DNA of 64,000 bases from Polytrichum commune (taxonomy: Eukaryota; Streptophyta; Polytrichopsida; Polytrichales; Polytrichaceae): positions 41,493,554 to 41,557,553 of the forward strand of contig OX485803.1 of NCBI GenBank assembly GCA_950295325.1, read 5' to 3'. The position numbers and the translations under genes were made by a program. This document shows, piece by piece, positions 26,181 through 50,862 of this stretch. Positions within the stretch are counted from its first letter, which is position 1. The number at the start of each line of letters is the position of its first letter. The notes beneath the pieces were generated by a model that worked only from the letters and a program-made list of their open reading frames with translations, had not been told where the DNA came from and did not search any database.

Positions 26181-26222
26181 ACAGCACTTAGCCCAACAAT
26201 ATTGTGTGTGCAATACTACAAT

Positions 26223-26780
26223 GTTCCTTCAGTGCGAGCTATAAATCGATTCTTAAGTTTCCCGAAGATCCTATGATTTTTTACTTTGGTTTCCGAGCAG
26301 CTTGATCAACCACCATGTAAGACCAGTACTGAAATCATCAGCACAACAAATGTGTGTGTGTGTACTACAGACTTACTCCTTCACTGCAAGCTATCAAACC
26401 TTCCTACAAGTTTAACCAGCTATCCTAGAAGTTTGCCCTCTGGTTTCCCAGCATCTTGATCAACCTCCATAGACTAGGACGGCAATGGGACTGCAATTAG
26501 CACAACAGTGTGTGTGTATGTGCGCAGACTTGCTCCTGCAATATTACAAGCTCTCAAAATTTTCTTAAAAGCTCCCTATCCTAAAAGCTTGCCAGGCTAT
26601 GGTTTCCAAGCAGCTTGATCAAGTAATCCACCTCCGTAGACCAGAACCAGCACTACAATATGTGCGCAGACTTGCTGGACCATATATTGCAGTATTGCAA
26701 GCTATCAACTCCTCCAAGTGTTTTTCTATCCTAAACGTTTGCTTTGTGGTTGCCCAGCAGCTTGATCAAGTTACAATGCT
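26223..26780. repeat. Tandem array of about 140-bp units upstream of ABCG
   Basis: Four diverged units each contain 'gcaagctatcaa', 'tatccta(g/a)aa(g)tttgcc', 'tggtttccca(g)cagcttgatcaa' and a (TG)n stretch before 'cagacttgctc'. They lie in the 5' flank or a 5' UTR intron of the ABCG gene. Confidence 0.65.
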
Positions 26781-30400: not shown

Positions 30401-30565
30401 CTTGCTTCTAGGTACATCTCATTTCCATAAGAATTGCAATGGTGCCCCATAACCAGGTGGACACTTCATAGCACGTACAAACTAACATTTGTGTAGAAAG
30501 GGGTATTATTTGAGGGATTAACGTACATAGTTATATAAGGGAGAGGTATTTTTTCTCTCTAGTAA

Positions 30566-30591
30566 CACTATATTCGTTAAATTGAGACTTT
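30566..30591 (+). repeat. Left terminal inverted repeat
   Basis: These 26 bp are identical to the inverse of 47858-47883. The inverted match breaks at base 27. Confidence 0.9.
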
Positions 30592-30699
30592 TTGGGCATT
30601 TTGAGACATTCACATAAATAAGAACAAGGATAAATGGAACACATATTGGAGAAAGTTGTAAGATGCGAACACTTTGTGTCGGGTATTTAGAACAAGAAC

Positions 30700-30980
30700 C
30701 CCATTAATAACTCATATTTGGGATTGTTTAGGATGAGCAATCCAAACCTTAGGCCAAATTGAAGGGGAAATCTTAAAACATTCATATTATCGCACACAAA
30801 ATATGAGATCTTGTATGAATATGTTTTAGGTAGGGCACTCCAAACCCTTAGACCATATTGAAGGGGAACTATGTGAACCAATATAATATAACATACAAAA
30901 TATTCCAAACTCATATTTGTGATGGTTTAGTTAGGGCAATCCAAACCTTGGACCATATTGAAGGGGAAATCATGTGACAC
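30700..30980. repeat. Left subterminal repeats, three units of about 98 bp
   Basis: Each unit carries a GTTTAGG-like / CCAAACC-like imperfect palindrome (near 30728, 30822 and 30924). A 'cc(a/t)tattgaaggggaa' block and an AT-rich tail follow. The cores match the outer bases of the 22-bp palindrome found through the element. Confidence 0.7.
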
Positions 30981-31111
30981 TTATATTATTGCAAAAAAAA
31001 CATACAAAGTATGGCATGTAAAATGCATAGCATGCTAACACCACACATACATTGGATAGTGCGACCCAAAATGATGTTGCCTATGGCCCAAAACCCTACG
31101 CCTACTATGGC

Positions 31112-31918
31112 CTATCTAGCCTCGGAGATTGCCTCTTTTTCTTTTGCTTTTTTTTCTTTTGCCTCTTTTTCTTTTGCCTCTTTTTCTTTTGCTGCGGCTT
31201 CTTTTGCTCGCATTGCTTCAACATTCCTGAAAATCTCCGCCCCGCGACTATAGTCATTCTTGGGGTGACCGCCATCCATAAGACATTTTGGAGTCCGTCG
31301 GCCGCCCGAAATATACGTCGAAGAATTCGAATACGATGAAGTGGATTGTCTCGCATTTCTGGTCATGGCGTACATACGCTCGAACTCGATGGACGCACTA
31401 GACCGCATAGGTTTTCGGGTGGGAGCAACCTGCAACGCGTCATTGCAAGACCACATGTGTTAGTTTAGGGAGGAAGACCCAAACGTGTCACACGATCATT
31501 TTTTAAGTGCAAAATGATTGTAATGCGCGGTTAACCATGTTTTAGAGAGGGGGGGGGGGTTCACCTTGTCACCGGGGGCGTTCCCATCGGAGTTGGCAAG
31601 GAGGGGCAAGGCGTCCCGCAAAGGAATAGGAAGGGTTCCACTCTTCGTTGGCCGTGCGTCCATCCGCAGCCGCCGTTGAGGTGTAATACTTCCGCCGGGC
31701 CGAGAGGGGGATGTCCGGACGCATTTGCGATTTATGCCCTTGAGCGGCGACGGGGACGGAGATCGCCGTAAGATTTGCTTGGGTGGGGGGCTATCGACGA
31801 CGCCGGCGTCAATAGGCTCCTTGGAGTAGTCAATGGTTGATGCGGCGTCGTAAACGGTCTCGTAGAAGAAGCTCCCCAACTCTGACTCGCTGACGATGTC
31901 AATCGAGGGCTCCAAACG
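31112..31918 (-). CDS. Two-exon low-complexity protein of the transposon (5' end unknown)
   Basis: Exon 31565-31918 (118 codons) follows a strong acceptor (pyrimidine tract, then CAG at 31919-31921) and ends in AAG|GTGAAC. Exon 31112-31429 (105 residues and a stop) follows TTGCAG. Phases agree. The first part reads RLEPSIDIVSESELGSFFYE, then a Pro/Ser/Arg-rich chain. The second ends in a Lys/Glu/Ala-rich helix of repeated AKEKE units (31120-31200) that is probably coiled coil. The start lies upstream and I could not fix it. The neighbouring phosphatase-like ORF ends in its own stop with no phase-0 donor before it, so this is probably a separate gene. Function unknown. Confidence 0.45.
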
Positions 31919-32056
31919 CTGGCGCAAAAAGGAAACGAAACAAAACCCAAAGGAAGAGGGTTTGCTAGAGCGCGTGAAAATCAAGATATATATGAAGCAT
32001 ATATTACACAAAGTGGGCGGGCGCATACACACACACACACACACACACGTGCTGCC

Positions 32057-32806
32057 TCAAATGAGCTTGTTAAATTTCGCGTGAGAGAACAACTCTCTGT
32101 ACAAATGGTCTCGTGGATCCAAGTATCTCTCGCCTATCGGATTATTCCTAACAAAATTGTTTACAGGTAGTCCGCTTCCCCTGAGCGCCTGGAGGTATTT
32201 ACTAAGGTCTAACAAAAATCGGTCCCGGACCTTCTCGACCGTCCACGTAGGGCAAACTATTAAGTTGGCCGCCGGGTTCAACATGTTCTTTGCGGCGCTG
32301 TCGTCCACCATGAGCATGTTCTCCCGGGTGGGACGGACGTCGTAGGGGACACCTATCAATGACGGACGCTGGTCCCAAAAAATGGGCTTCAAGACCTTGA
32401 GGTATTGGGGGGAAGCGGGGTTGTTTGGTTTTTTGACGACTTTGCCGTCCGGTGTGTACAATATTCTACAGGCTTCCTGTGCTAGGACCATGCAGGGGGG
32501 CTCGATGCCCTTGAAGATGAACTCCACGACTGCATTGGTGTTCTCGGCCTTCATGGAGCTCCACACGACCACCCACCATCGTTGTTGGGCGATCTGGAGG
32601 AAGGTCCGAAGCCACGGGCGGAGGTGAACTAGCTTGCTCTTTATGAACGTGGGCGGCCCGTCGTAATTCGCGTCCTCGGGCTTGCAAAAGGGCACCGTGG
32701 GGGTCCTCGGGCAATGAACGCATTGGACGAGGACCCCGTTGAGGTCTAACACCAAGAACCGGGTCTTAGGCGGCAAAGGTGGAACGGGTAAAATGGGGGG
32801 GACCAT
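32057..32806 (-). CDS. FCP1/NIF-type HAD phosphatase-like protein, 249 aa
   Basis: The ORF starts MVPPILPVPPLPPKTRFLVL and reads straight into HAD motif I, DLNGV (D21, N23). Motif II is VVVWSS (about 79-84), and motif IV is LMVDDSAAKNM (D168, D169). The length and spacing match the CTD-phosphatase-like (NIF, FCP1 homology) fold, whose members remove phosphate from RNA polymerase II tails or other Ser/Thr sites. The second Asp of the DxDx(T/V) signature, the usual acid-base residue, is Asn here. Activity may therefore be altered, although Asn at this site occurs in some plant relatives. There is no intron. It lies just downstream of the large DGQH protein on the same strand, within the transposon. 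I infer that it is element cargo; a captured host gene is possible. Confidence 0.7.
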   Translation of the reverse strand: MVPPILPVPPLPPKTRFLVLDLNGVLVQCVHCPRTPTVPFCKPEDANYDGPPTFIKSKLVHLRPWLRTFLQIAQQRWWVVVWSSMKAENTNAVVEFIFKGIEPPCMVLAQEACRILYTPDGKVVKKPNNPASPQYLKVLKPIFWDQRPSLIGVPYDVRPTRENMLMVDDSAAKNMLNPAANLIVCPTWTVEKVRDRFLLDLSKYLQALRGSGLPVNNFVRNNPIGERYLDPRDHLYRELFSHAKFNKLI

Positions 32807-33309
32807 CGCGCTACCTTCCTCGCTTCTTGGAGAGCCGCGACGCTATGCTCCGATCCCTGTGGAGACGAGCGACATAAGGCAGGGGAAGACTATGTCATGC
32901 TATGTCCACTTAAAGTGAATACAATATTTTCTGTGAAAAATACAAGAACCACTATGCATAGGCGGCCATACAAATGCAAGAGGGGGCAAGAGGAAAAAAT
33001 ATACATTTGAACACAAAAACAAACATAAGGGCACAAAATAATAATTTTATTGTTTGCAATGCTCTATGTACAAAATGCCTAGGGGTGCGAAGCCGCGTTG
33101 AACGATCCGTTCAAACTATCCTAATTCAACATCTACAAAATTGTGTGCACGCCTCCAAGTTCGAGTAAAATCGTGGGACGGGCGACGTTAGTGATCGTCG
33201 GGGGGGGGGGGGGGGGCTGAAGGGATGCGAGAGCGGATGGACGGGGTGGGGGCAGTTCCTCCTAGCTAGGGGGGACACGACCACGGCAACAAGACAATAG
33301 ACCAGGAGT

Positions 33310-33331
33310 TTGGGTCGAGCGACCCAAACTG
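33310..33331. repeat. 22-bp palindrome just 3' of the DGQH gene
   Basis: Arms GTTTGGGTCG and CGACCCAAAC surround AG, about 10 bp past the stop codon. Two further copies lie inside exon 3, near 33629-33650 (centre GC, perfectly symmetric) and 33699-33720 (centre GA). Confidence 0.9.
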
Positions 33332-33339
33332 AGGAGGTC

Positions 33340-36300
33340 TCAGTGTATTACCTCTCCCTGGTCATGCCTGGACGCCATGGAAGCCTCCACCGCCTCCGCT
33401 TGTCGTTCTCTCTCGCCACCGCCTTCTCCGACGATGTCAGCACCCCTCTCCTGCAAGCGCTCAGTGTCAGGACCTTCTCCTAACCCAACCTCCGCATGTG
33501 CATCATGCATAGGTTCATCGATTGGGATAGGAGTAGAGGTATCACCAGGCCCTCGAGGACCTTCAACATCAGGCATGGGTGTGTCTCTTTCAGACCCATG
33601 CTGGTCCATTGAAGACTGAGCGGTAACGGGGTTTGGGTCGGCCGACCCAAACTCTCGTGCATCATGAGATTGGCCTTGTTGCACTGTAAGGGGGGGCGGG
33701 TTTGGGTCGGACGACCCAAACATGTGGGGGTCGTCCTGCTGATGGGGCGGGGGGATCACCAGGGGCGGCCGAAGTGGTGGGGGGGTCACAGGTCTAGAAG
33801 ACCCGGGAAGGCGCCATATATTGGGGTCATCCGCTTGTTGAACCGGCGGATACGGACGGACGTGGGGGGGAACCATGTGCTGAAAGCTGAAGGAGGATTG
33901 CGGCACGGGCTGCGGAGGAATGTTCTGGGGAGGGAAGCCGGGGGGCAAGTGTGGAAATGAGCCCGGGGGAGCCACCACCAAACCCTGCGCCCACATGCCT
34001 CGAATCACTTGCGTGATCAAGTCCGCACTAGTTGGAGGTTGCGCCAATGCCCGCAGTCGCTCTTGCTCCAATAAGAGAGCCCTTAGCTCTGCCACTTCGT
34101 TCCGCACTGAGGGTTCTTCAGCAGCGGCCTTTTGCAAGCGGACGCGTTGTTCTTCGTCCCTTAACATCTTCTCGTTGGCTTCTTGCACGGTGAGGACTTC
34201 CGGCTTCACCTTCACCATCCCTGCGAAGGCACCTAGAGAGGGAGGGTCCGACCTGAGCCATTTCGCGAGCTCCATGTCGTCCTCGTCTTCGCTGCTAATG
34301 GCAATTGTCTCCTCGATGGCATAGTCGCCATAGAGTTTCTTGCCTTTTAGTTTCCTCCTCTCCCTGAACGCGGCAGTCGCATCCCTGGAGTACATGTCGC
34401 GGGCATCATCAACCGTCAGGACGGGCACCAACTTACTTTGTGGAGTTGCTACCCGCATTGCCTTCTTTCGTTGAGGGGCTTCAGATTCCTGAGTGAAACC
34501 TGTTCCCCCTTCTTCGACCTCGCCCTCCACTTTAGCCTCTTCTTCCTCCTCTTCCACCTCCTCCTCCTCCTCCCCCTCCTCATCACGCGGTCGCCGAGAG
34601 GATGTGCCTGGATGCACTTGGACCAGAGGCTCTGGTACAGCAACTGGAACCCTTATGGCCAATTCTTCAGGGTTGACACGCCTCGCCTTATCCAGCGGGC
34701 TCTCACCCCCTTCAACAGTCTCCTCGGCGTAGCTCCCAGGGATCCAGTCTAGTATATCCATCTTCTTCGCCAATGATTTTTGGGCCTTGTAGAATTGGAT
34801 GTCATTAAGGTCTACATAGCTGTACACGTTCAGCCCCAGCATCTGCAGAAATCCCACCAGATGTTATTATATGGCATAACATATGATTCCACCGAAAAGG
34901 GGAAGTACATACAAGACCTAATATCAATTGCAAAGGTTATAGTTTGGGTCGAGCGACCCAAACTAGCATCGGTGTTAGTTTGGGTCGCTCGACCCAAACT
35001 ATGAAAACAATTATGGTAAGGAGCTTACCATGCCAGCGAAGACGGGCTTGGTGCCGCCGAAGACGTTGAATATACAGTCCCCTCTTCTCGTCAAGGCCCT
35101 CATTATTCGGAGATAGAATTCCATCCGCAACTCGTCCGAATGGTATATGGCATATTTTGCCTCGTCGTAGAGGGACTTACTTGCGCCCAGGCCTTCTGGA
35201 ACTTGGAATAGTTTCTGCATCCGGGTTATGGGGTGGTTCTCCACCTTCAGCAAGGTTGCTTTGAACACAAAGTACAAGCACAACAAATTCATGACTTTGG
35301 TTTTCTTGTCCTTTAGTGTCGTGTACACCCCCTCCGCCGGTGCAGCAATGTAGTGAGACTTAGACACCGCATACTCAGGCTGCAATTTCCTCACAATTTC
35401 ATACACCTGCTCTGCTATCCTATCCTCTACTATCCACAGCCACATATCGACCTCCCTAAGCTTAGGGCTTGCATACTCCACGAACTTCGACATGAAGGGC
35501 TCGTAGAAGGGTGTACCCATTGTGCCCTCAAACGTACTCCCAAGAATGCTCCGGAAGTCTATTATACCAAAGGGGAACCGGTCCGCTGCTCTTACTCGTA
35601 TTTCTTTCCTGGAATCAAGGCCGGGCCATCCCTGGATTTTAATAGGGTCAAAAGCGACAAGGTTGAAATGCGCATCCCCCTCAAAACTTACAATCTTCTT
35701 CTCCTTTATAAAGTTTGAGAAGGCACGCGTCGAGTGTTCTGGAAGAGCCAGGTTCTTCCCACCCTTCACCAGTTTTGACTTTAGGAAGTCTTCTCCTGCC
35801 TCCCTGATCAGAGCTGCCATGGATGCACTGGTGAAGTTGTATTCAGCCTTGAACGCTCTCCAGTTCACCTCGTTCACCTCGTCATCGACAAAAATGTTCT
35901 TTTCCGGGATTAGCTTCTGCAGCTCCTGGACGATCGTTGTTTTCTTCTTCCTATTCTCTGCCCATTCCTTCATTGTGTAGCATGAAGGAACAAAGGATTT
36001 CGGCTTGGTGAAGACTATTTTGGGGTACACCCAAAATCTCTTAGGGGTCGGGTTGTTGTGCAAGATGTGCGTTGCCGCCTTCCCCATTTCCGCCTCCGAA
36101 AGACCCTGCAGACTTCTAAAGAATTCTCTCATGAGAGGCTTCATCGCCTTGAATCGAGAGGACGAGTTGAAGAGGTTGCATGTGTCAGGATCCATGAGAT
36201 CCCCTGTCTCGTGTTTCTCAAACACTGTCTTCCACTTCTGCCAAACCATGTCGGATGATGTAATCAAGTAGATCTCTCCTCTTAGCTCATTGTACTTCTT

Positions 36301-38042
36301 TTGCTTGTGACTTGAATTGTCAATTGAGGAGAACTTGTTTATCATTTGGTATTTGAAAAACTGCACAAGAGCATAGAATGCGTGTTAATTCTCAATATGT
36401 TGTTTCCAAACAAAGAAGAAAAATGATGAACAACAAACTGCGTAGACAAACACAAACTAAAACACAAGGTTTGGGTCGAGCGACCCAAACTGTATGAAGA
36501 AACACAAGGTTTGGGTCGAGCGACCCAAACTGTATGAAGAAACACAAGGTTTGGGTCGAGCGACCCAAACTGTATGAAGAAACACAAGGTTTGGGTCGAG
36601 CGACCCAAACTGTATGAAGAAACGCAAAGTTTGGGTCGAGCGACCCAAACTGTATGAAGAAACCCAAAGTTTGGGTCGAGCGACCCAAACTCTGTTTGAG
36701 AAACAATGCTCACCTCCCACTTTGGATTCTTGTCTTTTGCATTCTCCCTTTCCTTGGGAGGCCGGCCGTAGAACTCCCACACATCCCGCGATGCCATGAT
36801 GGTCATAATCCAAGAAGCTTGATATGCCCGCTTCTTGTTATTCATGTTGAAATAGCGGGAGATATCGCTCAGCCGGGTTTTGTCGTCCGACCACACGACC
36901 AATGCCTTCCATACCTTCAATTTTTCCTTTAGACCATTAGGATCATTCCACTCCGTCATCAGTTGAAGTTTCTTTGAAGCTTCAACACTGTGCTGACCGT
37001 CAATCAGCCAAAAATCGCCTTTCTCTATAGAAGGCCACATATCCAGTGTAGGCATTCTTTTGTGTCCCTGAGGCATGACAACAATAGTCTGCCTATCATG
37101 TTTAAACTGGTCGCTCACCATCTGGGCGATTAACCAATCAACATACGCATCTTCCTTTGCCCGAACGCACTTCTCTGGTGGCGCTAGGTGGCATTGTGCG
37201 ATGTTGACATCAAACTTGAATTCTCTACCCATGAAAAAACAATGTAAACACTTGGTGTCGAAATTGTTGAGTATTTTCTGGATCTCCGATGGCTCCACTC
37301 CTTTCCCGGGCTTGGGCATACGTAGCTCCGGTGAAACAGGCTCATCTGTCATGGCAGATACTGACTCTCTCGGCCTCTTAGATGGTGTCGTCTGCCGGCT
37401 TTGTGATGGCGTCGGTGTTTCACTATCAGCAGGAGTTGCCGTAGGTGTTGTTCTCCTCGAGTCAGCTGGAACCGGTCGGGGCTTCCTCACTGTTTGAGGT
37501 CTTGACGACCCTGCGCCCTCTTCAACAGTCGCCTTGCGCCTCACAACTTGTTGAGATTTTGACTTGCTTTGCTGGGTCTTGTTTATTGCGTTGATTGCCT
37601 GCTTAAGTTTAGTGAACCTGGTTGCAACCTTCGTGTTTGAAATGATCGCATCTATGAAGATTGTATCCGGTTTAACAATGTCTGGCTCAGCGCAGGATTC
37701 CTTCACGTATACCGGATCGAATGGCTCGGCTTGCTCATGCATGAACATGTGCACATTTTCCAGAGAAGAGTTTTCCAGGATGACGTCAACGTGCTCTCCT
37801 AGAGCATGAACTGATGCCACCTCCCATCCCGTCAAAGCATCCCATGTGTGTTGCTCCTCCGTGCCAACCTTCAAAACAAGGAGGATTTTGAATTGAGTTG
37901 CCTTTACTACAAGAAAGGACCATGCAATTACGAGGTCTTCTTTTGCTACGTAGGATTGGTTTTTAGGAGTTTCGTGCTCCTGCCAGATCGCGTCTGGTGC
38001 CGGCTTGAACCATCGTTCTCCAGGTCTTTTCTTGGGGGGCAT
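33340..38042 (-). CDS. Large DGQH-motif (ParB/DndB-like) protein, 3 exons, 1387 aa
   Basis: Exons 36714-38042, 35029-36360 and 33340-34842 join in phase 0 (donors GTGAGC and GTAAGC, acceptors TGCAG). The start MPPKKRPGERW directly follows a TTGCAG acceptor, which suggests a 5' UTR intron. Residues about 160-260 are a Ser/Thr/Pro/Arg-rich linker. Residues 300-443 contain FWLIDGQHSVEASKKL (D348), the DGxH(R) signature of ParB/Srx-fold and DndB-type proteins. The usual Arg after His is Ser. LSDISRYFNMNN follows. Exon 2 (444 residues) is a well-ordered chain I do not recognise (YCLYFVFK-like and WLWIVEDRIAEQVYEIV segments). Exon 3 has an acidic run (EEEEEVEEEEEE), a coiled coil (EVAELRALLLEQERLRALA) and a Pro-rich tail. 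Two palindromes are translated in frame as FGSSDPNP and FGSADPNP. Introns 1 and 2 hold six and two palindromes. Enzymatic or DNA-binding roles are inference. Confidence 0.65.
34945..35001. repeat. Palindrome pair in intron 2 of the DGQH gene
   Basis: Two full copies, one with centre AG and one with centre CT, lie about 33 bp apart in an otherwise ordinary intron of 186 bp (34843-35028). Confidence 0.9.
36460..36692. repeat. Six palindromes in tandem in intron 1 of the DGQH gene
   Basis: Each unit of about 40 bp is 'aaacacaag', the palindrome with centre AG, then 'tgtatgaag'. The six units are almost identical, so amplification is recent. The array ends about 20 bp before the exon 1 donor (in + coordinates, 36692 versus 36713). 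Open frames through the array (GSSDPN- and VWVARPK-like repeats) come from the palindrome and are not genes. Confidence 0.95.
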
Positions 38043-38065
38043 CTGCAAGTAGAAATACATATGTT

Positions 38066-38855
38066 AGTTTCGGTCGGGCGACCCAAACTCTTTCAAATCA
38101 TATAGGCTTATGTCTGGGTTTAGTAACATTTATATATGGGGTTACTTTTCACAGGTTTGGGTCGAACGACCCAAACCTGTGCCTACAATGGCTAATGAAT
38201 AATATATTATTTGGCTACGAAAACCAATCTTTAAGTTCATGGATACAACAATCATCACGAGCTACTGTTCTAGTTGTGGGTCATTTCATTATTGCTTGGG
38301 TGTTTGAGTTGTTGTTTATAAGTGTAAGTATTGTTCGTAAGCAGTAAAAATTTACGCAGAGTTTGGGTCGTTCGACCCAAACTTTGTAGCGGTATGGAAT
38401 GATCGGCTATGGCCTTTGATCATACCCAAGATGATGATTACCTAAATTATGAATTACCATTTCATGCGCTGTTTGGGTCGAACGACCCAAACTCTGCAGA
38501 TGGATTGGGTCGAGCGACCCAAAGCATGTGCTAGTTTGGGTCGAGCGACCCAAAGCATGTGCTAGTTTGGGTCGAGCGACCCAAACTCTGCAGATGGATT
38601 GGGTCGATAGGGTTAGATATTCACCCAAGATGATGATTAAATTAATTATAAATGAACATTTGATGCGGAGTTTGGCTAAACCCTAGACCCAAACAATGCT
38701 TATGGTTTGGGTCGAGCGACCCAAACTCTGCAGATGGATTGGCGCCCACGACCCAAAGCATCTGCTAGTTTGGGTCGAACGACCCAAAGCATCTTTAGAG
38801 TTTGGGTCGAACGATCCAAACCAGCTGGAGAGTTTGGGTCGCTCTACCCAAACCA
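38066..38855. repeat. Palindrome cluster upstream of the DGQH gene
   Basis: About 11 copies occur, near 38066, 38155, 38361, 38471, 38502, 38536, 38567, 38706, 38769, 38800 and 38832, plus half-sites near 38600 and 38890. Centres vary (GG, AA, TT, AG, CT) and spacing is irregular. Several copies follow 'ctgcagatgg' or 'catgtgcta'. The cluster lies in the promoter or 5' UTR intron. Confidence 0.9.
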
Positions 38856-40769
38856 GCTGCAGAGTTTAGTGTTTTAGGGTTTCAAACTGAAGTTTGGGTC
38901 GTCTCTCGAAACACTTTTGATTCCAGAGACCTTTATAATGTGTTTACGCAGCATATACAATGCTTATGCATTGTAGATGCTGCGAAACTTTAAAGAAATT
39001 GACACACATAAAGAAGTTGAAGAAATCACCTTGCTTTGCAAACTACACAACAAGCTGCTGTTGGAAGCAGTTCTAACAAGCTAGTCTTGGAAGCTGATTC
39101 TAGAAAGGATTGGATATCATAAAACTAAGAACGCCTCACAAACATTCACTCTGAATTGAAGAAGCTTTCACAAACATTCACTCAGAATTAAACAATCCCT
39201 CACAAACATTCACTCTAAATGTAACAAGTGTTTACAAACATGAACAAAGAAGCTATCTGAAGGCCACACATGCATCCTGATTTTCGAACAATCATTCTAA
39301 TTCCGAAATCACTCTACACTCACACATGAATGTTTCTAAGACCAGGAGGAACTGACACAACCACTTTGAAACAACACTCACACTCCAAAACAACAAAGAC
39401 GTTTTGAAATGGCTAAAATGTATAGACTTTAATACAAAAACAAACCCTAAACTCATACTACACTCAGAACTCGGTCAATGCGCACTCAATGAACAACAAA
39501 ATAGATCAAAAGAAGAGGAGGAGTGAAAGAGAGAATGAGATAATGATGAAGAGGGAAGGAGAGAGGGAATGCAAGTTCGACAAGGAGAGAGAGAATGCAA
39601 GGGAGGAGGCGGCGCTTTCAAGAGCGGCGGCGCCTCCAGAAAGTATGAGGAACGTACAAAGGAGGAGGAGCTTGGAGCGGAGGAGAGAGAAGGAGAAAGT
39701 GCGGAGGGGAGAGTGAAAGGGGGAAGGTCACTCAAGGGCGGGACCCATTCGGGCCGGCGCCTTTCGTGTCCGTTCGGCTCATGGCCGCCACGTGTCACGG
39801 GGCGCTCCATGGCCCAAACGAATACACAATCTGAGCCATTGGAGAGCCCCAGGCCCATCGACGGTCGATAGGCCTCGCAGGTGGGTATCCTTTAGCCACC
39901 TATCCCATACCATCCTTGAGGATACTAAAAAACCTTTATAGCCTAAGGTTTTTAATTTAATGGTCCCCCGATGGATTTGCTAATATCAAATAATGAAACT
40001 GTATTGGTTTTGTAATTTTAGTAATCTACACATATGCATGAATCGAGAATGATAGATACTAGACTAAGAGGAGTATTTAATAATTATATTGCAATCCTCG
40101 TAGGCAATTACATAATGGAATAATATAACTATGGTAACCATTTACACAATGAATGGTTTCGAGTTATATATTGTAATTATCTATGAAGGTTGTTGGTAAA
40201 GGACAATGCTATAGCCTACGATGGATCCGTTAACACATACCATTGAACTAAATCTAATTATACAAGTTTATGTAGTGTCATTCATTATAATATGGAATTA
40301 TGCAATATTAAGTGTTGACAACTTAATATCATTGTTGTTTGCGAAAAGCAACAAAGATGTTGTTTGATTTATAGCATGATGGAACATTAACATACTTATT
40401 TACAAGTTTACATATTTATGAGATACAAATATATTGAAGCGGGTGTTTTTGCTGAAGAACCCAATTAAGAACTCATATGAAGATGGTTTAGGTAGGACGA
40501 CCCAAACATTAGACAATGTTGTTGTTGTTCATATATTTAGTTGAGACAAGATAAAGTCTACAAATATTGAATATAGTGATAGTAAATGAGAGAAGCACCA
40601 TGTATACAAATATGAAGCTATCAAATACTAATATGTGGAGTTTAACATTATATGAAGCCATTTAAGCAATCACTTTGTTGTTGGATGATCCCTCCACATA
40701 TATTAAACAACATATCTTATTAGGAAATGAGGCACAAATTACAGTAGATGGTGTTCTATATGGAAGCCA

Positions 40770-41318
40770 CACGGGTAGGTCACTCTAAGGCATTTTTGTG
40801 CACCACGTGCGGCTCAGGGTTTTTTGTTTTGGGGCTATTTACCTTCAAGGGTTGAATTAAAGCCTCCCTATAATTACTTGAATTTCAAAAATGGCCCATT
40901 TGTTTGCACCCTTCCATTACTTATATTGTCCAAGTCACTGCAATTTTTTGTACTCTATATTCCTTTTAAGTAATAAAAGCTAATCTACTTCCTGTTAAGG
41001 GAAACCATGGAAACAAAGAAGGGTGCAAACAATAATATCATTGCAAACAAAGTTATGAAGAAAACACATAGGAGACCATAGCAAACATTATACTAAACAT
41101 ACCTTCTAGGAACCTTATCTTCAGCCCCTATATTAATTTTACAAAAAAATAATGGCCCACATTTTATGTCCATCTAACTTACTTATAATGGGATTGTCTA
41201 CATTTAATGGCCCCTTCATTATTTGGAATTCCTTTATAATTTTTATTTCAAATGATTTCAATCCTCTCTATATTATGCCGAACGTCGTTTTTAAAATGCA
41301 CTAAGTGACCTACCCGTG
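40770..41318. mobile_element. Nested 549-bp MITE with 8-bp target duplication
   Basis: The left end CACGGGTAGGTCACT is matched by the inverse AGTGACCTACCCGTG at the right end, and similarity continues through a 'gcattttt' block. The flanks are GGAAGCCA (40762-40769) and GGAAGCAA (41319-41326), identical at 7 of 8 bases. No coding capacity. An 8-bp duplication points to hAT or a similar superfamily. Confidence 0.75.
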
Positions 41319-41345
41319 GGAAGCAACCCTGAACAACTACGAGGG

Positions 41346-41392
41346 TGTAGGGTGTAGGGTGTAGGGTTTAGGGTTTAGGGTTTAGGGTATAT
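41346..41392. repeat. Interstitial telomere-like repeats (TTTAGGG)
   Basis: Three GTGTAGGG units grade into about three TTTAGGG units, the plant telomere motif. With so few units it could be a telo-box-rich stretch or a healed break. Confidence 0.85.
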
Positions 41393-43260
41393 AAATGTGT
41401 CTTGTTGCACTCGAAGCCATAAATGAATGGCGCATAGGTCAAATGAGGGGGCCAAGTCGCTTGTGGTTCTAAAAACAAATGTATATAGATATCACAATAG
41501 TCTAATTCATGAACATGAACGTTGGTTACATTTCATGTTATGTTTGTTATGTATGTTATGTTACGTCGTAGATGCGTTCATATTTAGTGTATAAATCTCT
41601 AAATATCTTATTTAGTGTAGTGACACTAGAACACACCAACATGTATTTAAGGACATGTTCTGCTCAACTTGCATTGAATAGATACAACTATATATGTTTA
41701 GATTTTTCATCAAACATTTGTTAAAACAAATAAAGTTGACTACATTTTTTTTGGCAAGCCAAATCAATAAAAACTATAGGTACAAAACACAACTACAATA
41801 AGTATGATATTTAGTGTTTGATACACTAAATACAAGTGAATACACAATATATCAATAACCATATGAAAGTAATAAACATTAAATATAAGCTATAGTAATA
41901 TGTGGCATTGACATGTTTGAATTTAGTGTTAGTAAGGATGTGAAAAGAAGAAATATACGTGAGAGTAGAAGGTAGCAACACATTTACTTCTAACACTAAC
42001 TGTCATAGGATTGAAAATTAATGTTGAGCATGTAAGGGTGGTAACCATAGTCCGCCAAGAGCCTAAGGCTAGTGTAAATGCAGCCTACAAAATTTGTGAC
42101 TTAGCCTATAAAATTTTGAAAGTGTAGGACAAAGAGCCTATGGACAATTTTAAAACATAGGATATCAACCTATGTGGTAAAAAACATGTAGGAAATTTTG
42201 CCTACAAAGTTTTTAAAAGAGCGGATTTTAGCCATTCATCCTTCTTCAAATTGGGAAATTAGTTGGCCTAAGTACATATCTTTAGGCTAATACTCGGGGC
42301 TCTTGAGTGGCACATAGGCGGATATCAATAATAGCCCTGACTCCCTCCCCGTCGATCTTTACAAATACCACAGCCCAAGCCCCATCACCGCATAGAGGTT
42401 GAATCAGAAGATGGTGAGGACTTTCACCCTTAAACTCATTTGAATTTTAGCAACCTTTCATAACTTATAATCAACTCTTTAAAAAGGAGTTGGTTAATCC
42501 TTGGCCTTCAAACGTGGTGAAGGGCTTAGCCAGGTTCAATTCCTGCCAAGGATACCACTTAGTACTCAAATTTTGAATTTAAAGCCTACAACATTAAAAG
42601 ATATGAAGGATTTTAACCTACTAAAAATTAGTTTTAAAGGCAATTGGCAGGTAACTTAAAAACTCAAAAGGTTTTCAACTTACAAAAATTTGATATTGTA
42701 GGATGCAACCTATGCCATGAGGGAAATAGCCTATGCCCTTTTAAAGAGGTAGGCAATTAACCTCAATAACTTCAAAAACTTTTCGGACACTGGTGGTAAC
42801 AACACTACATATAATCAAATCCACACATCATATTTTGTGTAGTTATTTAATAGCGGAATTAGGAGGTTAGTTGTCCAAGGTCATTTGATGGTTGGCGCCA
42901 CGAAGAGGCAAGCTAAATATGGATGCTCTATTACCAACAAGAAGCGGGAAATTCTGTCAGAAGGTTTGAACTTAGGTTTAGGGTTTACGTTCGGGCGGGA
43001 AAGGGATCCAAAGAGGAAGGCCAAGGCGGAGGCGGGTAGTATAAAGTACCAAACCCCCCAAACTTTGCTCCTTTTTTCTCATCTCTCCATTCTGAAATGG
43101 TTGCAAGCTCTCTCAAGTAGTGGTGGAGTGCAAGGTTCGTGTATGCATCCGTTGATGAGTAGCTAATTACAACAGCCATGCACGGCCTGAATTCTTCCAA
43201 TTAGTATCCACGTAGCTGAATATGGAAGATTACCGCAATTTAAGGCGGAATTTGCGGAAT

Positions 43261-44094
43261 GTTTGGATCGCTCGACCCAAACCCACCCCCATAGTGAGGT
43301 TTGGGTCGAGCGACCCAAACCCACCCCTATCACGGGCTGGGCCTGGATTAGCAAGCCCATCCTGTCACGAGGTTTGGGTCGCTCGACCCAAACCCACCCC
43401 CTCTCACGGGCTGGGCCTGGATTAGCAGGCCCATCCTGTAACGAGGTTTGGGTCGCTCGACCCAAACACACCTCCATTGTGAGGTTTGGGTCGAGCGACC
43501 CAAACCCACCCCTGTCACGGGTTGGGCCTGGATTAGCAGGCCCATCCTGTCACGAGGTTTGGGTCGCTCGACCCAAACCCACCTCCATTATGAGGTTTGG
43601 GTCGAGCGACCCAAACCCACCGCTATCACGCGCTGGGCCTGGATTGCCAGGCCCATCCTGTCATGAGGTTTGGGTCGCACGACCCAAACACACCTCCATT
43701 GTGAGGTTTGGGGCAAGCGACCCAAACCCACCCCTGTCAGGGGTTGGGCCTGGATTAACAGGCCCATCCTGTCACGAGGTTTGGGTCGAGCGACCCAAAC
43801 CCACCCCTATCAAGGGCTGGGTCTGGATTACCAGGCCCATCCTGTCACGAGGTTTGGGTCGAGCGACCCAAACCCACCCCTATCAAGGGCTGGGTCTGGA
43901 TTACTAGGCCCATCCTGTCACGAGGTTTGGGTCGCTCGACCCAAACACACCTCCATTGTGAGGTTTGGGTTGAGCGACCCAAACCCACCTCCATTGTGAG
44001 GTTTGGGTCGAGCGACCCAAACCCACCCCTGTCACGGGTTGGGCCTGGATTAGCAGGCCCATCCTATCACGAGGTTTGGGTTGCTCGACCCAAA
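43261..44094. repeat. Palindrome array upstream of the candidate transposase gene
   Basis: Fifteen copies of the palindrome begin at 43261, 43299, 43372, 43446, 43483, 43557, 43594, 43668, 43705, 43779, 43852, 43925, 43962, 43999 and 44073. CT-centred and AG-centred copies often alternate in pairs 37 bp apart. Between pairs lies a second inverted repeat, GGGCCTG-(6 bp)-CAGGCCC, eight times. The array ends about 190 bp before the ATG at 44288. Long open frames across it on both strands are repeat artefacts. Confidence 0.95.
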
Positions 44095-44287
44095 CCCACC
44101 CTCATGCACACAATGGGGATGTGCATAGACGGATCCTGACTAAACTGTTGTGCGCTCCATCTTTTTGGAACCCATCGATATAATATTCATACAACATGTG
44201 TTATGATAAGGTTTCTGTGTTTTTCTATTGGACCCTATAGCTTTTGTCAATTCTTTACAAGGTTCCATGTTCATGTGTGTAGGCAAA

Positions 44288-47200
44288 ATGGATGGGTATA
44301 CTGGAAGAGGGTATTCGTCTGGAGAAGACATGGCCACTTGGCCATCTGCATCTGAGGAAGAGCTAGACATTGTCGGGGAGGCTACTATGGATGAGAGTTC
44401 AGATGAAGAGCGTTTCGATATACCTTCGCGTTCCGTACCGGACTGTCCCATTCCAGAGTGTGCCGTGCTTTCAAGAGCTTCATGGGTGAATTTGGATGTG
44501 TTACTTCTTAATGACAATGGGGTTGTTGTGGCGGAGGGTATCTGTCGTAACACCCATCCACAAGATTGCATTGATCAAAATCCGCTTGGCACCGAGGACG
44601 TTGGGATTGTCATATTGGAGTCACTCGTTCCTTCTGAGGTGGATCCCACTCATAGGTTCTCCCTCCGCAGGTGGCCATTGAGGAATGTCACGACTGATGG
44701 AGTTAGCTTGCGTGAACATGAGCAACGACACATGCAACTCGAAAAGGAAATGCAATCAAACATGCGGCCACGCAAGGGTCAAAGAAAGTACGATACTGTG
44801 GCACGTCCTTCTCCATCTGCAACTGATTGTAAACGTCAAAGGCTGCTTGGGGAGGAGTCCATAAGAGAAGTTGCCACAAAAGATTGTTGTGCGCATTGTT
44901 GTTGCCAATTGTTTCCAAGGGATAAATTGAAGGCCATCCGTGAAGAAATGTGGCTTGGAGATTTTCGTCTAAGATCCACAAAAAAACTTGATGTCCATAG
45001 GGCAATACATGTGAATGGGACGGGTCGCAAGGTAATCACCATTGAAAGCATAGACGTGTGTTGTAAGGCATGGTACACCATTTACGGTGTGTCGAAGGCG
45101 GACTTCTATAGACAAGCTGCTTATGCCAAGGAAGGCCGCCGGTCCCGTTACCATGGGAACGTGGGTTTAAAGAAACCTAGGGAAGCAACAAGACAAGCAA
45201 CGGCAACTCTAGCAACCATCATTGTCCCCCTTGCTGATGCAATGCCGCACAAAACACGCACACTCACAACCGGTGAAAAGGTTGTGGAGAAAGTTTTTCC
45301 CACAGGCACAAAATGGAAAGACATATTGTTGGACGTTAATGCAGTTGGCGAGAAGATTGGGTTGGAGCCAATTTCATTGTCAAAATTAAGTGCAATCAAA
45401 AAACAAAACTTTAGCGAATACATTACAAAAAGACGAGGGGACAAATTTGCCAGGTGCTCTAATTGCGAGAAGTTGAAGCGCCTCCGGGATGCACACACGA
45501 TGGATACCGAGTCATATGCATCGCATCAATTGAACTATTTCAAGCACGTAAACATGCAAGAGGCACACCGTAATGATTACTACACAAATAGAGCTTTGTC
45601 CATCTCCAGGCCCTTGGAGGTTCTTACGGTCATCCATGACAAAATGGACCATGCCAAAACAGCCTCCCCATGTTTTGCAAATCGAATCAAGGCCACGGAT
45701 GGGTTTTTTAAGTTGCATCTATCGGTTACAGGTGAACTTCGAAACAATGTCATGACATACCCTAAATGTTGTGGTTTTTTATTCCGTGATGTACTGGAGA
45801 ACATGGATTCCTTCATAATGGTTTATTCATACATAGATGCTAATCACGTTGGGTTGGCATTGCAGGAATGATTGCACATGGACACGGTGATGTCAAGTTT
45901 GCTCATTATGCTCTTGATTTGTATCCAGCGGATTCAAACCACACGATAGGATCATTTGCAAGGCTTTTACGTGATTTAGAGAAACCACCAGCCTATTCTT
46001 CAGGATTGTTATTTGAGAACACAGGTTCAACACCTTTATATGAAGCGGTGTTGGATGGAAAAGATGTATGCTTGCATTCGTTGCCCGAGCCACCCAATGA
46101 ACCCGTGATTGCCAAGAAGTTGCCTCCAACTTTGCGTGTCTAATTGGACAATTGTGCCAAGGACAATAAAAGCATATATGTATTTGCATATTGGTCGTTG
46201 TTGGTTGCGAAAGGCATTTTCAAGGAGGTTTTTGTGTCCTTCCTATTGGTAGGCCACACGCACAATGATATTGATGCATCTTTTGGGCGGTGGAGCATGA
46301 AGTTGCGGGAGGAGGATTTTCCTACAATCCCATTATTGATGAAGTCGTACATGGATTTGGAGAACGTTCCCGTCATCCCCCATATGATTGAGGAGGTGCC
46401 AGACTTTAAGGCATTTATAGAACCTTATATTCGAAGTGGAGCTCACCGATTGATCGGGCATACGAAGGCACAACAATTCCGGTTCTACATGCGTGACGAT
46501 GGTGTCCCGGCCATGCAATACAAGTTGTTGTGCACGACACAAGACTGGAGCCCGCCGGAGGGTCTTCTTGTGTGGCGCGTGGATGCGGATGGGAAGACCA
46601 TGTTACCGGATGGGGAGCCTAGCCCTTGTAAGCCAATAGCCATGAAGAATTTGGAGGATATTTTGAAAGGTATATCAGGCTTCATACAATATTGGGAGAG
46701 TTTGAAGATAGCGGATGTTGGCGGATCATGTTGGCATCGTTATGGGAGTTGGATACATTATTGGACACGTGTTCGTGCCGCCTTGGTAGACCTCCACCAA
46801 GATAGCCCTCATACTTTGAGGCATGGATTTTGGCCACAAACACGAGTCGATGTACAAGCTTCAGAGGCTAGTCTTTTGGGAAATGGAGAGGTTCGAGAGG
46901 AGTTTGATGTGGACGACCATTACGTGGGGCCTGCTAGTAGTCGTCCGCCACCATCTTTCCGCATTGCAGTGGATTGTCATGAAGGATATATGCTCATTTT
47001 GCGTCCTGGAGACGAGACATATGTGAAGCCAGTGTGGGTGGCAAGAGCTTTGTCCAAACCCAATTTTGTAACTTCCAGCCCTCATTTTCGACAAATACAA
47101 GTGGAGTACTACCGACCGACGGCAAGGAATGAAGATGTGATTCGGCATTATACAGGCTGGGATACAAACCCTAACTTTCGGTGGAAGGTGGATTCTGAGC

Positions 47201-47352
47201 ACGGTCCATCTTGGGTAGATACAGATTCCATATTCATAGCATGGAAACCACGGAAAAATCATAGTGGATCAGTGTCCATCCCTCAAAAGTACATAACTTT
47301 TGCAAAAGACAACCTTGCTCGGATCGCAGAAGAAGCAACCCACGTTGAATGA
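44288..47352 (+). pseudogene. DUF7869-like protein, candidate transposase, interrupted
   Basis: The likely start is ATG 44288 (MDGYTGRGYSSGEDMATW), just after a TGTGTAG acceptor-like site. Frame 1 runs to about 45790, with a Cys cluster CCAHCCCQLFP, LSLSKLSAIKKQNFSEYI-like helices and the acidic motif VIHDKMDHAKTASP. A second frame resumes at a GCAG acceptor at 45861-45864 with MIAHGHGDVKFAHYALDLYP, and runs to 47352. The frame change is best explained by an intron of about 70-100 bp whose donor I could not fix. TAA at 46141-46143 interrupts LPPTLRV*LDNCAKDNK, where relatives appear to have a coding residue; CAA to TAA is the simplest change. GHTHNDIDASFGRW follows. The Asp-rich motifs suggest an RNase H-like DDE core, but this is inference. 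The N-terminal half is acidic and variable. Confidence 0.65.
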
Positions 47353-47883
47353 GAAGTTGGTAGGATTGTATTAGCATGATTATAGTGTAAACAGTAATTC
47401 TACGAACATATATTACTCATATGTGTGCTCTTCAAAATTGGGGCAGAGTTTGGGTAGAACTTACGAATACTATATTGTTTTGGAGTTGAATGAATATCCA
47501 TTTACTATATTTCAATACAAATGTGAAGTTCATTTTTTTATTAAGTTTGGGACTAAATTGTCTATTGAAAAAATATGCATTTATTACATGCACTTTGTAT
47601 GTTGCAATGTCTATATTCTATGGAGCATGCTAATAATAGAAATCATTATATATATATTTTTGGGTGAAACTTGTTTGGAGTGCTCTACCCAATGTGTTTT
47701 TGTTGATGAAATTGGTGTTGAGTGCTCTACCATATGTGCTTATGTCCGCACATCATAGGTGTGGGATATTAGAACATTTAATATATTTGAGATTGTTGAC
47801 AATATAGTTTCAGGCATCTTCATGTTGTTTGATCCATATATTAATTTGAGACTAGAGAAAGTCTCAATTTAACGAATATAGTG
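47353..47883. other. Right subterminal region of the transposon
   Basis: AT-rich. It has degenerate palindrome relatives (gtttgggtag near 47449, TGTTTGGAGTGCTCTACCCA near 47681 and 'ttgagtgctctacca' near 47717). A small hairpin, GAGACT-6-AGTCTC, lies close to the terminus. Confidence 0.6.
47858..47883 (-). repeat. Right terminal inverted repeat
   Basis: The exact inverse of 30566-30591. It is followed by TTTAGTGT, the right target-site copy. Confidence 0.9.
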
Positions 47884-48589
47884 TTTAGTGTGTACATCTA
47901 AAATGATTATTATTTTTCTTTGAAGTAAAGGTAGAAGTACAAAAGGGGCCCTGAGGTTTAGAGAAAAAATTGATAATAAATGTGCAAGTTTTGTTCAATT
48001 TACTTTATTTCATCCAAATGGCATGTGTTTAGGGGTCATATTCCTATGAGTGAAAAAATGTTCAATAAATTTCTCATTAGAAAGTGAAAGTGGATTAACT
48101 ATGTAATAAATGCCTATTTATTCATGATTTATATTTTGTGTGTGTAGTAGAGGCATTTATTATATTCAATTGAAAAGCTTAGTATAATTACATGAGTCCA
48201 TTTTCTAGCCTAATGTTAGTACATATACGTATGTTTTCTCTATAAATTTCTTGTATATGGGTTTTTTATTTCACAGTCACCTGTGCACGTCATTTCAGTT
48301 TCCAATGAAGAGTCCACCTCCTGGGAATGTACACATAATACTACTTGATAAAACTAATAGTGTCACCAAAGCCTACTATTGATGCAACTCTCCTCTTAAC
48401 AATTATACTACAAATTGTCATCTACCTACTCAAGCCATTTGTGGGGCACAACTTGTTCGGTCATAGGCAAAACCAAAGGTAATATTGAGATATTCTTTGT
48501 TTGGATAAGAATGCACAAATCACAAAAAAGTTGGTGATAATGCTCTTCATTTGGATGAAGGCCAACCTTACAAGCACTAGCAGTTGGAT

Positions 48590-50540: not shown

Positions 50541-50862
50541 GATGAGAAAGAAAGGGAAAAAGGGTCCATTTCAGTCACTTCGGGGCCACTTACGTTATGA
50601 AGATGAAGCACTAAGATTGAGTTAGTTAAGTTTCCAGGTGCGGAGACAAGACAGTTGTTGAGTTCATCGGATGTGGATGTCGGCCTGTACAAGACAATTT
50701 CAAGCTCTCCTGACTCCTCTCCAATACCTGGTTGATGGATGATAAATACCTGGTTGACTGCTGCTTCACGACATAATATCTATCACCAAACCTAGTACTC
50801 AGTTTCTGAATGCAGCGCAATGTAACTTATGTCTGCAGAGACTCTTGGGCATAAGTTATTCA

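What the first reader, a model, noticed from the sequence alone, without database searches (positions are those of the whole stretch)
30566..47883. A 17.3-kb multi-gene TIR transposon of unclear superfamily
Seen: 26-bp perfect inverted ends, a decayed 8-bp target duplication, four genes in two divergent groups, and dozens of copies of one palindrome. Known: CACTA (En/Spm) elements start CACTA but make 3-bp duplications and carry tnp2-type transposases; hAT elements make 8-bp duplications but have other ends. Inference: the combination of CACTA-like ends, an 8-bp duplication, a DUF7869-like protein, a DGQH protein and an FCP1-like phosphatase may define an undescribed element family.
Basis: partly seen in the sequence, partly recalled or inferred. 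Interest (0 to 1): 0.92.

Follow-up and report, generated by a model that had tools for sequence, protein, structure and literature searches.

The report
Giant Sola-like transposon with palindrome arrays
This is a real, apparently recently active 17-kb "jumping gene" whose ends occur about a thousand times in its host, most like the known Sola group, and it carries a gene plus dozens of copies of a 22-letter palindrome that may together let it control its own expression or escape silencing by its host.

Summary
The ends are a perfect 28-bp inverted repeat beginning AACACTATA, not CACTA. The target duplication is a perfect 4 bp in 21 of 21 elements checked. The unnamed 408-Mb host genome holds 1045 forward and 1043 reverse copies of this end. 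There are three genes, not four: a DUF7869 transposase (one in-frame stop in this copy), a divergent three-exon gene with a DGQH (ParB-like) motif, and an FCP1/SCP-like phosphatase. Two further families share the transposase type, similar ends, 4-bp duplications and a DGxH-type gene. This fits the Sola superfamily, not CACTA or hAT; a brown-algal Sola1 element is published with a divergent ParB-methyltransferase gene. What looks new is the cis side. A 22-bp palindrome (10-bp arms, variable dinucleotide centre) forms arrays in introns and upstream regions. A second family carries a different palindrome of the same geometry. Other elements, one Mutator-like, carry such palindromes beside a DGNH-methyltransferase gene, one of them the very same palindrome. 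I propose that the DGxH proteins, or a factor acting with them, bind these arrays to keep element genes expressed, as VANC does for VANDAL. Binding is inferred, not shown.

The parts
30560..30563 (.). left copy of the 4-bp target duplication, TAGT
   Evidence: perfect 4-bp direct repeat directly outside the TIRs in 21 of 21 elements
30564..30591 (+). left terminal inverted repeat, AACACTATATTCGTTAAATTGAGACTTT
   Evidence: 28 bp, 100% complementary; 1045/1043 genome matches of its 25-bp core
32057..32842 (-). FCP1/SCP-like phosphatase gene (NIF domain; motif I reads DLNGV, Asn where the second Asp is expected from recall)
   Evidence: Pfam NIF 1.4e-15; dN/dS 0.11-0.22 against copies A-D; 150 genome matches scored of 1247 candidates
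33340..34842 (-). left gene, exon 3 (acidic, low complexity)
   Evidence: AG acceptor before ATG conserved in W, A, B, D; dN/dS 0.14-0.17
34843..35028 (-). left gene, intron 2, with two palindromes (34942, 34978)
35029..36360 (-). left gene, exon 2; possible remnant of a beta-class methyltransferase fold (GDCIFNVFGGTKP), not supported statistically
   Evidence: hhalign E 0.061 against 0.32 reversed
36361..36713 (-). left gene, intron 1, array of six palindromes at 40-bp spacing (36469-36690)
36714..38042 (-). left gene, exon 1, with the DGQH (ParB/Srx-like) motif IDGQHSVEA
   Evidence: donor GAG|GTGAG conserved; a profile of it with the family 2 exon matches the family 3 gene (hhalign 93%, 2.7e-7); dN/dS 0.06 against B and D
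33308..33721 (.). three palindromes; 33631 and 33700 lie in exon 3, 33308 just beyond its stop
38066..38856 (.). palindrome array upstream of the left gene (exact copies at 38155, 38361, 38471, 38565, 38705, plus degenerate ones)
43299..44022 (.). palindrome array upstream of the transposase gene (11 exact copies)
44210..45871 (+). transposase gene, exon 1 ORF (first presumed catalytic Asp in IHDKMDHAK); splice site not fixed
   Evidence: 38-39% identical to the family 2 transposase; dN/dS 0.21-0.33
45844..47352 (+). transposase gene, exon 2 (DUF7869: LDNCAKDNK, GHTHNDID), with one in-frame stop at 46141-46143 in this copy; exact exon start not fixed
   Evidence: Pfam DUF7869 2.5e-31 for 46144-47352; 502-codon open frame in copy C, one stop in W
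47858..47885 (-). right terminal inverted repeat
47886..47889 (.). right copy of the 4-bp target duplication, TAGT

Best explanation
A giant Sola-like cut-and-paste transposon. Shown: DUF7869 elements with similar TIRs, 4-bp target duplications and high copy number; exons kept by purifying selection; palindrome arrays mostly outside coding sequence. Inferred: DUF7869 is the DDD transposase, acting on the 28-bp TIRs with a 4-bp stagger. Inferred: the three-exon left gene makes a DGxH (ParB-like, perhaps formerly ParB-methyltransferase) protein that binds the family's 22-bp palindrome as a dimer, one monomer per 10-bp arm, at the arrays in its own introns and upstream of both main transcription units, and so keeps those units free of silencing or sets their expression, as VANC proteins do on VANDAL elements. 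The phosphatase may act on RNA polymerase II at the same genes; that part is a guess.
For: Ends and duplication. Two more DUF7869 families with similar TIRs (by eye) and 4-bp duplications (9 of 9 and 6 of 9) and a divergent DGxH-type gene (hhalign of the family 1+2 profile with family 3, 2.7e-7 against 0.0045 and 0.0073 reversed). Purifying selection on every exon compared, dN/dS 0.06-0.33 between W and copies A-D wherever dS could be estimated. In family 1 the palindrome is conserved at exactly 10+2+10 bp with little information outside, although silent sites of the neighbouring exons 1 and 2 are saturated (dS 1.6-2.5 or not estimable against A-D) and spacers and centre bases differ by copy. 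Palindromes avoid coding stretches: 2 of 27, 2 of 36, 2 of 25 and 1 of 23 (W, A, B, D) fall inside protein-similar stretches that make up 43-46% of each element. Family 2 has its own palindrome with 10-bp arms and two centre bases. DGNH-methyltransferase elements carry palindromes too. CpG o/e 0.74-0.85 in family 1 against 0.40-0.55 in flanks. Published parallels: VANC motif arrays in introns and upstream regions (PMC5735166, passages); Sola1 with a divergent ParB-methyltransferase gene (PMC12477816, passage).
Against: Family 3 has the DGQH gene but no such palindrome in the three loci read, only, in L056 and L057, a tandem array of about 59 bp. The W exon 1 protein had no tblastn hit at 1e-3 in the family 2 or family 3 loci, L058 or L059; family 2 is placed by motif and position (23% identity). 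DGQH versus DGNH, and DGNH versus real ParB-like proteins, align in register at the motif but not significantly (E 0.05 and 0.059 for one target); DGQH versus ParB aligned elsewhere (0.063). The methyltransferase part of this element's own gene is not supported. The same palindrome occurs in two superfamilies whose DGxH proteins are not detectably alike, which a host factor would explain as well. A methyltransferase ORF at C1:9662150 lies in 10 kb without such palindromes. The centre is not free in every family: 1 bit in family 2 and near fixed in two other palindromes. No methylation, expression or binding data exist here.
Confidence: 0.5

Rival explanations
1. The palindromes are sites for a host dimeric transcription factor or insulator protein; several transposon superfamilies have acquired them to be expressed, and the DGxH protein does something else.
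For: One and the same palindrome, GTTTGGGTCG-NN-CGACCCAAAC, lies in a Sola-like and in a Mutator-like element whose DGxH proteins are not detectably similar. Family 3 has the DGQH gene without palindromes in the loci read.
Against: Different families carry different palindromes of about the same size, as expected for co-evolving element proteins. Apart from AT repeats, no palindrome family with 3 or more copies and a 2-base centre was found in the 46.7 kb of window outside the element.
Confidence: 0.25
2. The palindromes are selfish or neutral minisatellites that expand in non-coding parts of elements and have no function.
For: Arrays vary in copy number and spacing between copies and mostly avoid coding sequence.
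Against: In family 1 only the 22 bp is kept and the spacers are free, across subfamilies whose silent sites in exons 1 and 2 are saturated; symmetric arms with a variable centre are what dimer binding selects for.
Confidence: 0.15
3. The palindromes are transposase-binding sites needed for transposition, like the subterminal repeats of CACTA elements.
For: They occur in the six long copies read and are absent from two short deletion copies, one of which is a singleton by its junction (1 full-length match; 40 scored of 783 candidates).
Against: In W the exact copies start 2.7 kb from the left end and stop 3.9 kb from the right end. The short copies without palindromes still have 4-bp duplications, although deletion after insertion is possible. 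The same palindrome occurs in an element with another type of transposase.
Confidence: 0.08
4. The element is a CACTA or hAT element with unusual features.
For: CACTA occurs two bases inside the end.
Against: Perfect 4-bp duplications in 21 of 21 elements, with fewer than 4 of 21 sharing a longer repeat at that place; no CACTA or hAT domain among the Pfam matches of six ORFs.
Confidence: 0.02

Closest known systems
Sola superfamily, in particular Sola1-1_Ec32 of the brown alga Ectocarpus (PMC12477816, passages read)
   Same: 4-bp duplications and DDD transposase for Sola in general, some members over 15 kb, known from a moss (PMC10741241, passage); [quoted passage not shown]
   Different: Here the methyltransferase part is degenerate or unrecognised in the Sola-like family; there is an added phosphatase, and palindrome arrays. 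The passages that I read in the Ectocarpus paper mention no palindromes (its figures and supplements were not seen). Sequence homology to Sola1 could not be tested.
VANDAL (Mutator-like) elements with VANC anti-silencing proteins (PMC5735166, passages read)
   Same: Family-specific short motifs in tandem arrays in introns and upstream regions of element genes, which diverge fast in spacing and number.
   Different: VANC motifs are 9-bp direct repeats, here 22-bp palindromes; a relation between VANC and the DGQH protein was not tested; different transposase superfamily.
CACTA (En/Spm) with TnpA sites (TnpA recalled; 3-bp duplications also in PMC10741241, passage)
   Same: Large element, short TIRs, an element-encoded factor binding repeated motifs in the promoter.
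   Different: 3-bp duplications and subterminal sites in CACTA; here 4 bp and internal sites.
Bacterial ParB/parS (recalled)
   Same: A DG-x-H type motif protein paired with a palindromic site; the motif reads DGFHR in 6 of 6 ParB-like proteins fetched.
   Different: No significant profile match; eukaryotic transposon context; long arrays with a variable centre.

Membership tests
Sola superfamily | 4-bp target duplication | tested here: met
   21 of 21 (family 1), 9 of 9 (family 2) and 6 of 9 (family 3)
Sola superfamily | DDD transposase | tested here: inconclusive
   DUF7869 shows D / DN / GHTH-x-D-I-D motifs by eye; catalytic residues not proven
Sola superfamily | sequence homology to known Sola1/2/3 transposases | not testable with these tools
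   no Repbase sequence at hand
Sola1 with ParB-methyltransferase accessory gene | divergent gene with ParB-like domain | tested here: inconclusive
   divergent DGQH (NGQH in family 2) gene in all three families; motif only, profile match to ParB not significant
Sola1 with ParB-methyltransferase accessory gene | methyltransferase domain in that gene | tested here: inconclusive
   not significant for the Sola-like gene; significant only for the DGNH gene of other elements (hhalign 3.5e-7; Pfam 1.7e-4 but below the curated cut-off)
CACTA (En/Spm) | 3-bp target duplication and CACTA terminus | tested here: not met
   4 bp; terminus AACACTATA
hAT | 8-bp target duplication | tested here: not met
KDZ/Zisupton | 8-bp target duplication (PMC12730594, passage) | tested here: not met
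VANC/VANDAL-type anti-silencing system | family-specific motif arrays in non-coding parts of the element | tested here: met
   families 1 and 2; not in family 3, and one palindrome is shared by two superfamilies
VANC/VANDAL-type anti-silencing system | element protein binds the motif and removes methylation | not testable with these tools
   needs binding and methylation data; only CpG o/e was computed
Mutator-like (the L058 element, not the window's) | long target duplication of Mutator type (7-12 bp in PMC10741241, passage) | tested here: met
   10 bp in 2 of 3 copies; right end of the third not found. No MULE domain matched its transposase ORF in Pfam; SWIM 0.076, below cut-off

The most novel reading that the evidence does not exclude
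A portable self-recognition module, made of a DGxH (ParB-like, often methyltransferase-linked) gene plus arrays of a cognate palindrome of about 22 bp, has spread among unrelated DNA transposon superfamilies (Sola-like and Mutator-like) of one genome. Palindrome sequence and protein co-diversify by family, giving a convergent counterpart of VANC anti-silencing and a candidate binding site for the ParB-methyltransferase proteins known from algal transposons, for which I found none named in what I could read.
Probability: 0.4. Interest if true: 0.85.

Novelty: new variant of a known kind. Interest (0 to 1): 0.7.

Why it matters
ParB-methyltransferase genes in algal transposons have been proposed to bind and mark their own element (PMC12477816, passage), but in what I could read no target site was named. 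Here are four palindrome types, each found in elements beside a DGxH or DGNH-methyltransferase gene; three were counted in this genome (9231, 644 and 997 copies). That makes the idea directly testable by one binding assay and one methylome. If true, sequence-specific anti-silencing arose outside VANDAL elements, which would help explain how 17-25-kb transposons can remain long and abundant.

Tried and rejected
8-bp and 3-bp duplications: rejected by 21 of 21 perfect 4-bp duplications. CACTA and hAT: see above. Methyltransferase domain in the window's left gene: I saw motif-like stretches, then tested the joined exons against Pfam, a PDB profile search and nine N6/N4 methyltransferases, and the family 3 exons alone. 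The best result was E 0.061 for one target against 0.32 reversed; hmmsearch scored reversed sequences as well as real ones. I dropped it for this element and keep it only for the DGNH gene. Structure prediction of two window proteins without an alignment gave mean pLDDT 33.7 and 35.4, so no fold search was run. PDB profile search with the DGQH domain: one hit, E 0.029, to a Cas1, judged noise. Viral contigs: no confirmed relatives of the transposase exon or the DGQH exon. Literature: 'DUF7869' 0 papers; Sola1 and 4-bp duplications 28 papers, listing of 20; DGQHR plus transposon 3 papers, none on topic by the listing; moss DNA transposons with Polytrichum 0; ParB plus transposon plus methyltransferase plus alga plus N6-methyladenine 1 paper; three broader searches gave nothing nearer in their listings. 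Only open-licence PMC papers were searched, so absence from print is not shown. Papers: PMC5735166, PMC12477816, PMC12730594 and PMC10741241 read as passages (of PMC12477816 also part of the reference list); PMC10398659 abstract and outline; the rest listings only. Rows left out of claims: copy E (too few changes; ratios 0.17-1.46); dS not estimable for exons 1 and 2 against A and C. Alignment A2 had a useless short row and was not used.


Full report
WHAT IS THERE. The element runs from 30564 to 47885 (17,322 bp). Its ends are a 28-bp perfect inverted repeat, AACACTATATTCGTTAAATTGAGACTTT. Searching the unnamed host genome (G000, 407.8 Mb, 64 contigs) with the first 25 bases and up to 3 mismatches gave 1045 forward and 1043 reverse matches; the reversed-pattern control gave 0 and 0. 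I fetched 20 end pairs picked from the C1 listing (18 of 14.4-18.4 kb, 2 of 3.6 and 4.8 kb) and added the window. In 21 of 21 the bases directly outside AACACT form a perfect 4-bp direct repeat; a longer repeat at that place is shared by fewer than 4 of 21. So the duplication is 4 bp, not a decayed 8 bp, and the terminus is AACACTATA, not CACTA. Only 100 of the 2088 ends were listed. Among the 91 of these on C1 (47 forward, 44 reverse, all exact) there are 36 adjacent convergent pairs: 20 span 14-18.5 kb, 2 are short, 13 span 18.5-60 kb (probably nested insertions or separate elements) and 1 is longer. In this sample full-size copies outnumber short ones, which is unusual for a DNA transposon.

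GENES. The window has three genes. (1) Transposase, plus strand: exon 2 matches Pfam DUF7869 at 2.5e-31; exon 1 holds the IHDKMDHAK stretch. In this copy exon 2 has one in-frame stop just before LDNCAKDN; copy C has an open 502-codon frame there. (2) The left gene, minus strand: ORFs 36342-38063, 35011-36384 and 33340-34863 read as exons joined by GT-AG junctions kept in the four copies examined, giving about 1,387 residues with no stop in the window copy. Exon 1 carries IDGQHSVEA. (3) A phosphatase with a NIF/FCP1 domain (1.4e-15), whose motif I reads VLDLNGV, with Asn where FCP1/SCP enzymes have a second Asp (that comparison is recalled). In the genome the best 150 of 1247 phosphatase candidates were scored; by my count 131 of these 150 rows show no stop, a sample biased to intact copies. 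Of the 26 of them on C1, 17 lie between two adjacent listed ends, 5 within 4 kb of one listed end and 4 near none.

SELECTION AND MOSAIC STRUCTURE. Five further full-size copies were compared. E is 96-98% identical outside the arrays. A, B, C and D are 74-84% identical over the left genes (92-93% in the first 0.6 kb of A and B), but A and C are 93-96% and B and D 86-93% identical across the transposase gene and right end, so modules have been exchanged. Against A-D, dN/dS is 0.11-0.22 (phosphatase), 0.06 (exon 1, where dS could be estimated), 0.07 (exon 2, likewise), 0.14-0.17 (exon 3), 0.21-0.33 and 0.14-0.22 (transposase exons); dS was saturated for exons 1 and 2 against A and C. Every exon compared is thus under purifying selection. 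Copy E had too few changes to say anything (ratios 0.17-1.46).

RELATED FAMILIES. DUF7869 matches in the genome: the best 150 of 1492 candidates were scored and all 150 pass the family cut-off; of the 23 on C1, 9 lie with family 1 ends, 6 next to family 2 ends and 8 near neither kind of listed end. Family 2 (about 25 kb, ATGGGGATATTAACTAAAATGAG ends, 50 and 47 matches) has 4-bp duplications in 9 of 9 and the same gene order: phosphatase (tblastn 2e-19), acidic exon, middle exon (4.5e-11), an NGQH version of the DGQH exon, then the divergent transposase (E below 1e-90). The NGQH exon itself gave no tblastn hit at 1e-3; it is placed by motif and position (23% identity). Family 3 (mostly 3-11 kb, AACACCGGTTTCGTTAAAAGTGCA ends, 51 and 53 matches) has 4-bp duplications in 6 of 9 and a DGQH gene divergent from the DUF7869 gene. 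A profile of the family 1 and 2 exons against the family 3 gene gives 93% probability, E 2.7e-7; reversed controls 0.0045 and 0.0073. The three TIRs resemble one another by eye. DUF7869 and a divergent DGxH-type gene are therefore the common core of this lineage.

THE PALINDROMES. GTTTGGGTCG-NN-CGACCCAAAC occurs 27, 36, 25, 25, 23 and 22 times in copies W, A, B, C, D and E and 9231 times in the genome. In family 1, information is close to 2 bits at each of the 10 arm positions, low at the two centre positions (0.35 bits) and falls to 0.6 and then below 0.2 outside, so the site is exactly 22 bp. The same places carry arrays in different subfamilies, but spacing (40, 57 or about 50 bp in intron 1) and centre bases differ (AG in 21 of 27 for W; AC in 19 of 25 for B and 20 of 23 for D, strands pooled). 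They lie in both introns of the left gene, upstream of it and upstream of the transposase gene; only 2 of 27, 2 of 36, 2 of 25 and 1 of 23 fall in protein-similar stretches in W, A, B and D (C and E not examined). Family 2 carries CCCACGGGTG-NN-CACCCGTGGG instead, with the same arm length and spacing but a centre limited to A/T (12 copies of its 9-bp-arm core in L060, 5 in L054; 1 bit at the centre; 644 in the genome). Family 3 carries none in the three loci read. Apart from AT repeats, no palindrome family of 3 or more copies with a 2-base centre occurs in the 46.7 kb of window outside the element, and none arose in 20 rounds of shuffling the loci.

THE SAME DESIGN ON OTHER TRANSPOSONS. Palindromes outside these elements led to L058, an element of about 12.3 kb with a 10-bp duplication in 2 of 3 copies (the third right end was not found); this and a weak SWIM match (0.076, below cut-off) make it Mutator-like, although Pfam found no MULE domain. 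It carries the very same GTTTGGGTCG palindrome between two exon-like ORFs of its transposase gene and just upstream of a divergent gene reading FIWDGNHRFFAW; relatives of that protein number at least 150 (150 scored of 1182 candidates). Its downstream exon, with those of L059 and L116, matches N6/N4 DNA methyltransferases (hhalign 93%, 3.5e-7; reversed 0.40 and 0.48); the next exon of L116 gives Pfam N6_N4_Mtase 1.7e-4, below that family's cut-off. L116 (DGNH gene, superfamily not determined) and L059 carry a third palindrome, GTGTCTCGG-NN-CCGAGACAC (997 copies; one cluster brackets the DGNH gene at C1:10936941, another lies about 3 kb from a weak methyltransferase match, E 0.033, at C1:15217832). 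L058 also has CCCTGTGCGTTAACGCACAGGG, 22 bp with a nearly fixed centre.

WHAT IT IS AND HOW IT MAY WORK. A 4-bp duplication, a presumed DDD transposase and a size over 15 kb fit Sola, which is known from a moss (PMC10741241, passage). Sola1-1_Ec32 of Ectocarpus, 21.5 kb, has a gene on the strand opposite the transposase with ParB-like and methyltransferase domains, suggested to bind and mark its own element (PMC12477816, passage). I had written down the DGxH and methyltransferase reading before finding that paper. The arrangement of arrays in introns and upstream regions, evolving in spacing and number, is what VANC motif arrays do in VANDAL elements (PMC5735166, passages). I therefore infer that DGxH proteins bind these palindromes and protect element genes from silencing. 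A high CpG o/e (0.74-0.85 in family 1, 0.76 in L058, against 0.40-0.55 in flanks) is compatible with low methylation but could reflect composition or age; family 2 pieces gave 0.68, 0.43 and 0.61, and family 3 gave 0.60.

WHAT SPEAKS AGAINST IT. Family 3 has the gene but not the palindrome. The DGQH and DGNH proteins, and DGNH and ParB, match only at the motif and not significantly (0.05, 0.059); DGQH and ParB do not even align there (0.063). The left gene of this element has no statistically supported methyltransferase part. One palindrome shared by two superfamilies with unlike proteins would also be explained by a host factor. No binding, methylation or expression was measured, and Sola membership was not tested against a Sola sequence.

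VERDICT. The superfamily is probably known (Sola), the family and its gene set look new, and the paired palindrome arrays are the part worth testing. The organism was not identified; a moss is a guess from genome shape and the literature.

Noticed in passing
window 50758-51837: 359-codon open frame made of tandem copies of a unit reading VVPSPTGYVLVLFNNLKQCSVRSSRTIGDLPRVLVSNRLFETL; probably a minisatellite read through.
   Followed up: no
window 25707-26228: Open frame (minus strand) with [16 protein letters not shown], by eye an ABC-transporter fragment.
   Followed up: no
L058 (C1:2152000-2161999) with L099 and L100: Mutator-like element, about 12.3 kb, with a 10-bp target duplication (2 of 3 copies), a DGNH-methyltransferase-type gene and two palindrome types.
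   Followed up: partly
L115 (C1:9656000-9665999), ORF 5227-6957: 577-codon frame matching N6_N4_Mtase at 1.1e-7 with VDLIIVDIPYGMP; no palindrome family in these 10 kb.
   Followed up: partly
L057, 5900-6565: Family 3 locus has an 11-copy, 59-bp tandem array, about where families 1 and 2 have palindromes (upstream of the transposase gene); no palindrome with 9-bp arms in it.
   Followed up: partly
G000 C3:17877971-17894103: Three ends of family 3 type spaced 5,544 bp apart on one strand, suggesting a head-to-tail tandem of an element.
   Followed up: no
copy A610k, element 14791-16308 (in L041; this copy lies reversed in the genome): About 1.5-kb insertion in the transposase gene, 97% identical to part of L059; probably a nested smaller transposon.
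   Followed up: no
copies B2112k and D36932k, about 8.8-9.6 kb: An inner extra copy of sequence found near the left end, next to an inverted stretch matching 11.5-12.2 kb of W.
   Followed up: no
G000 contigs C10, C12, C23: Methyltransferase matches near the start of C10 and C12 and ParB matches on C10, C12 and C23, much stronger than those on the large contigs; possibly bacterial contamination.
   Followed up: no
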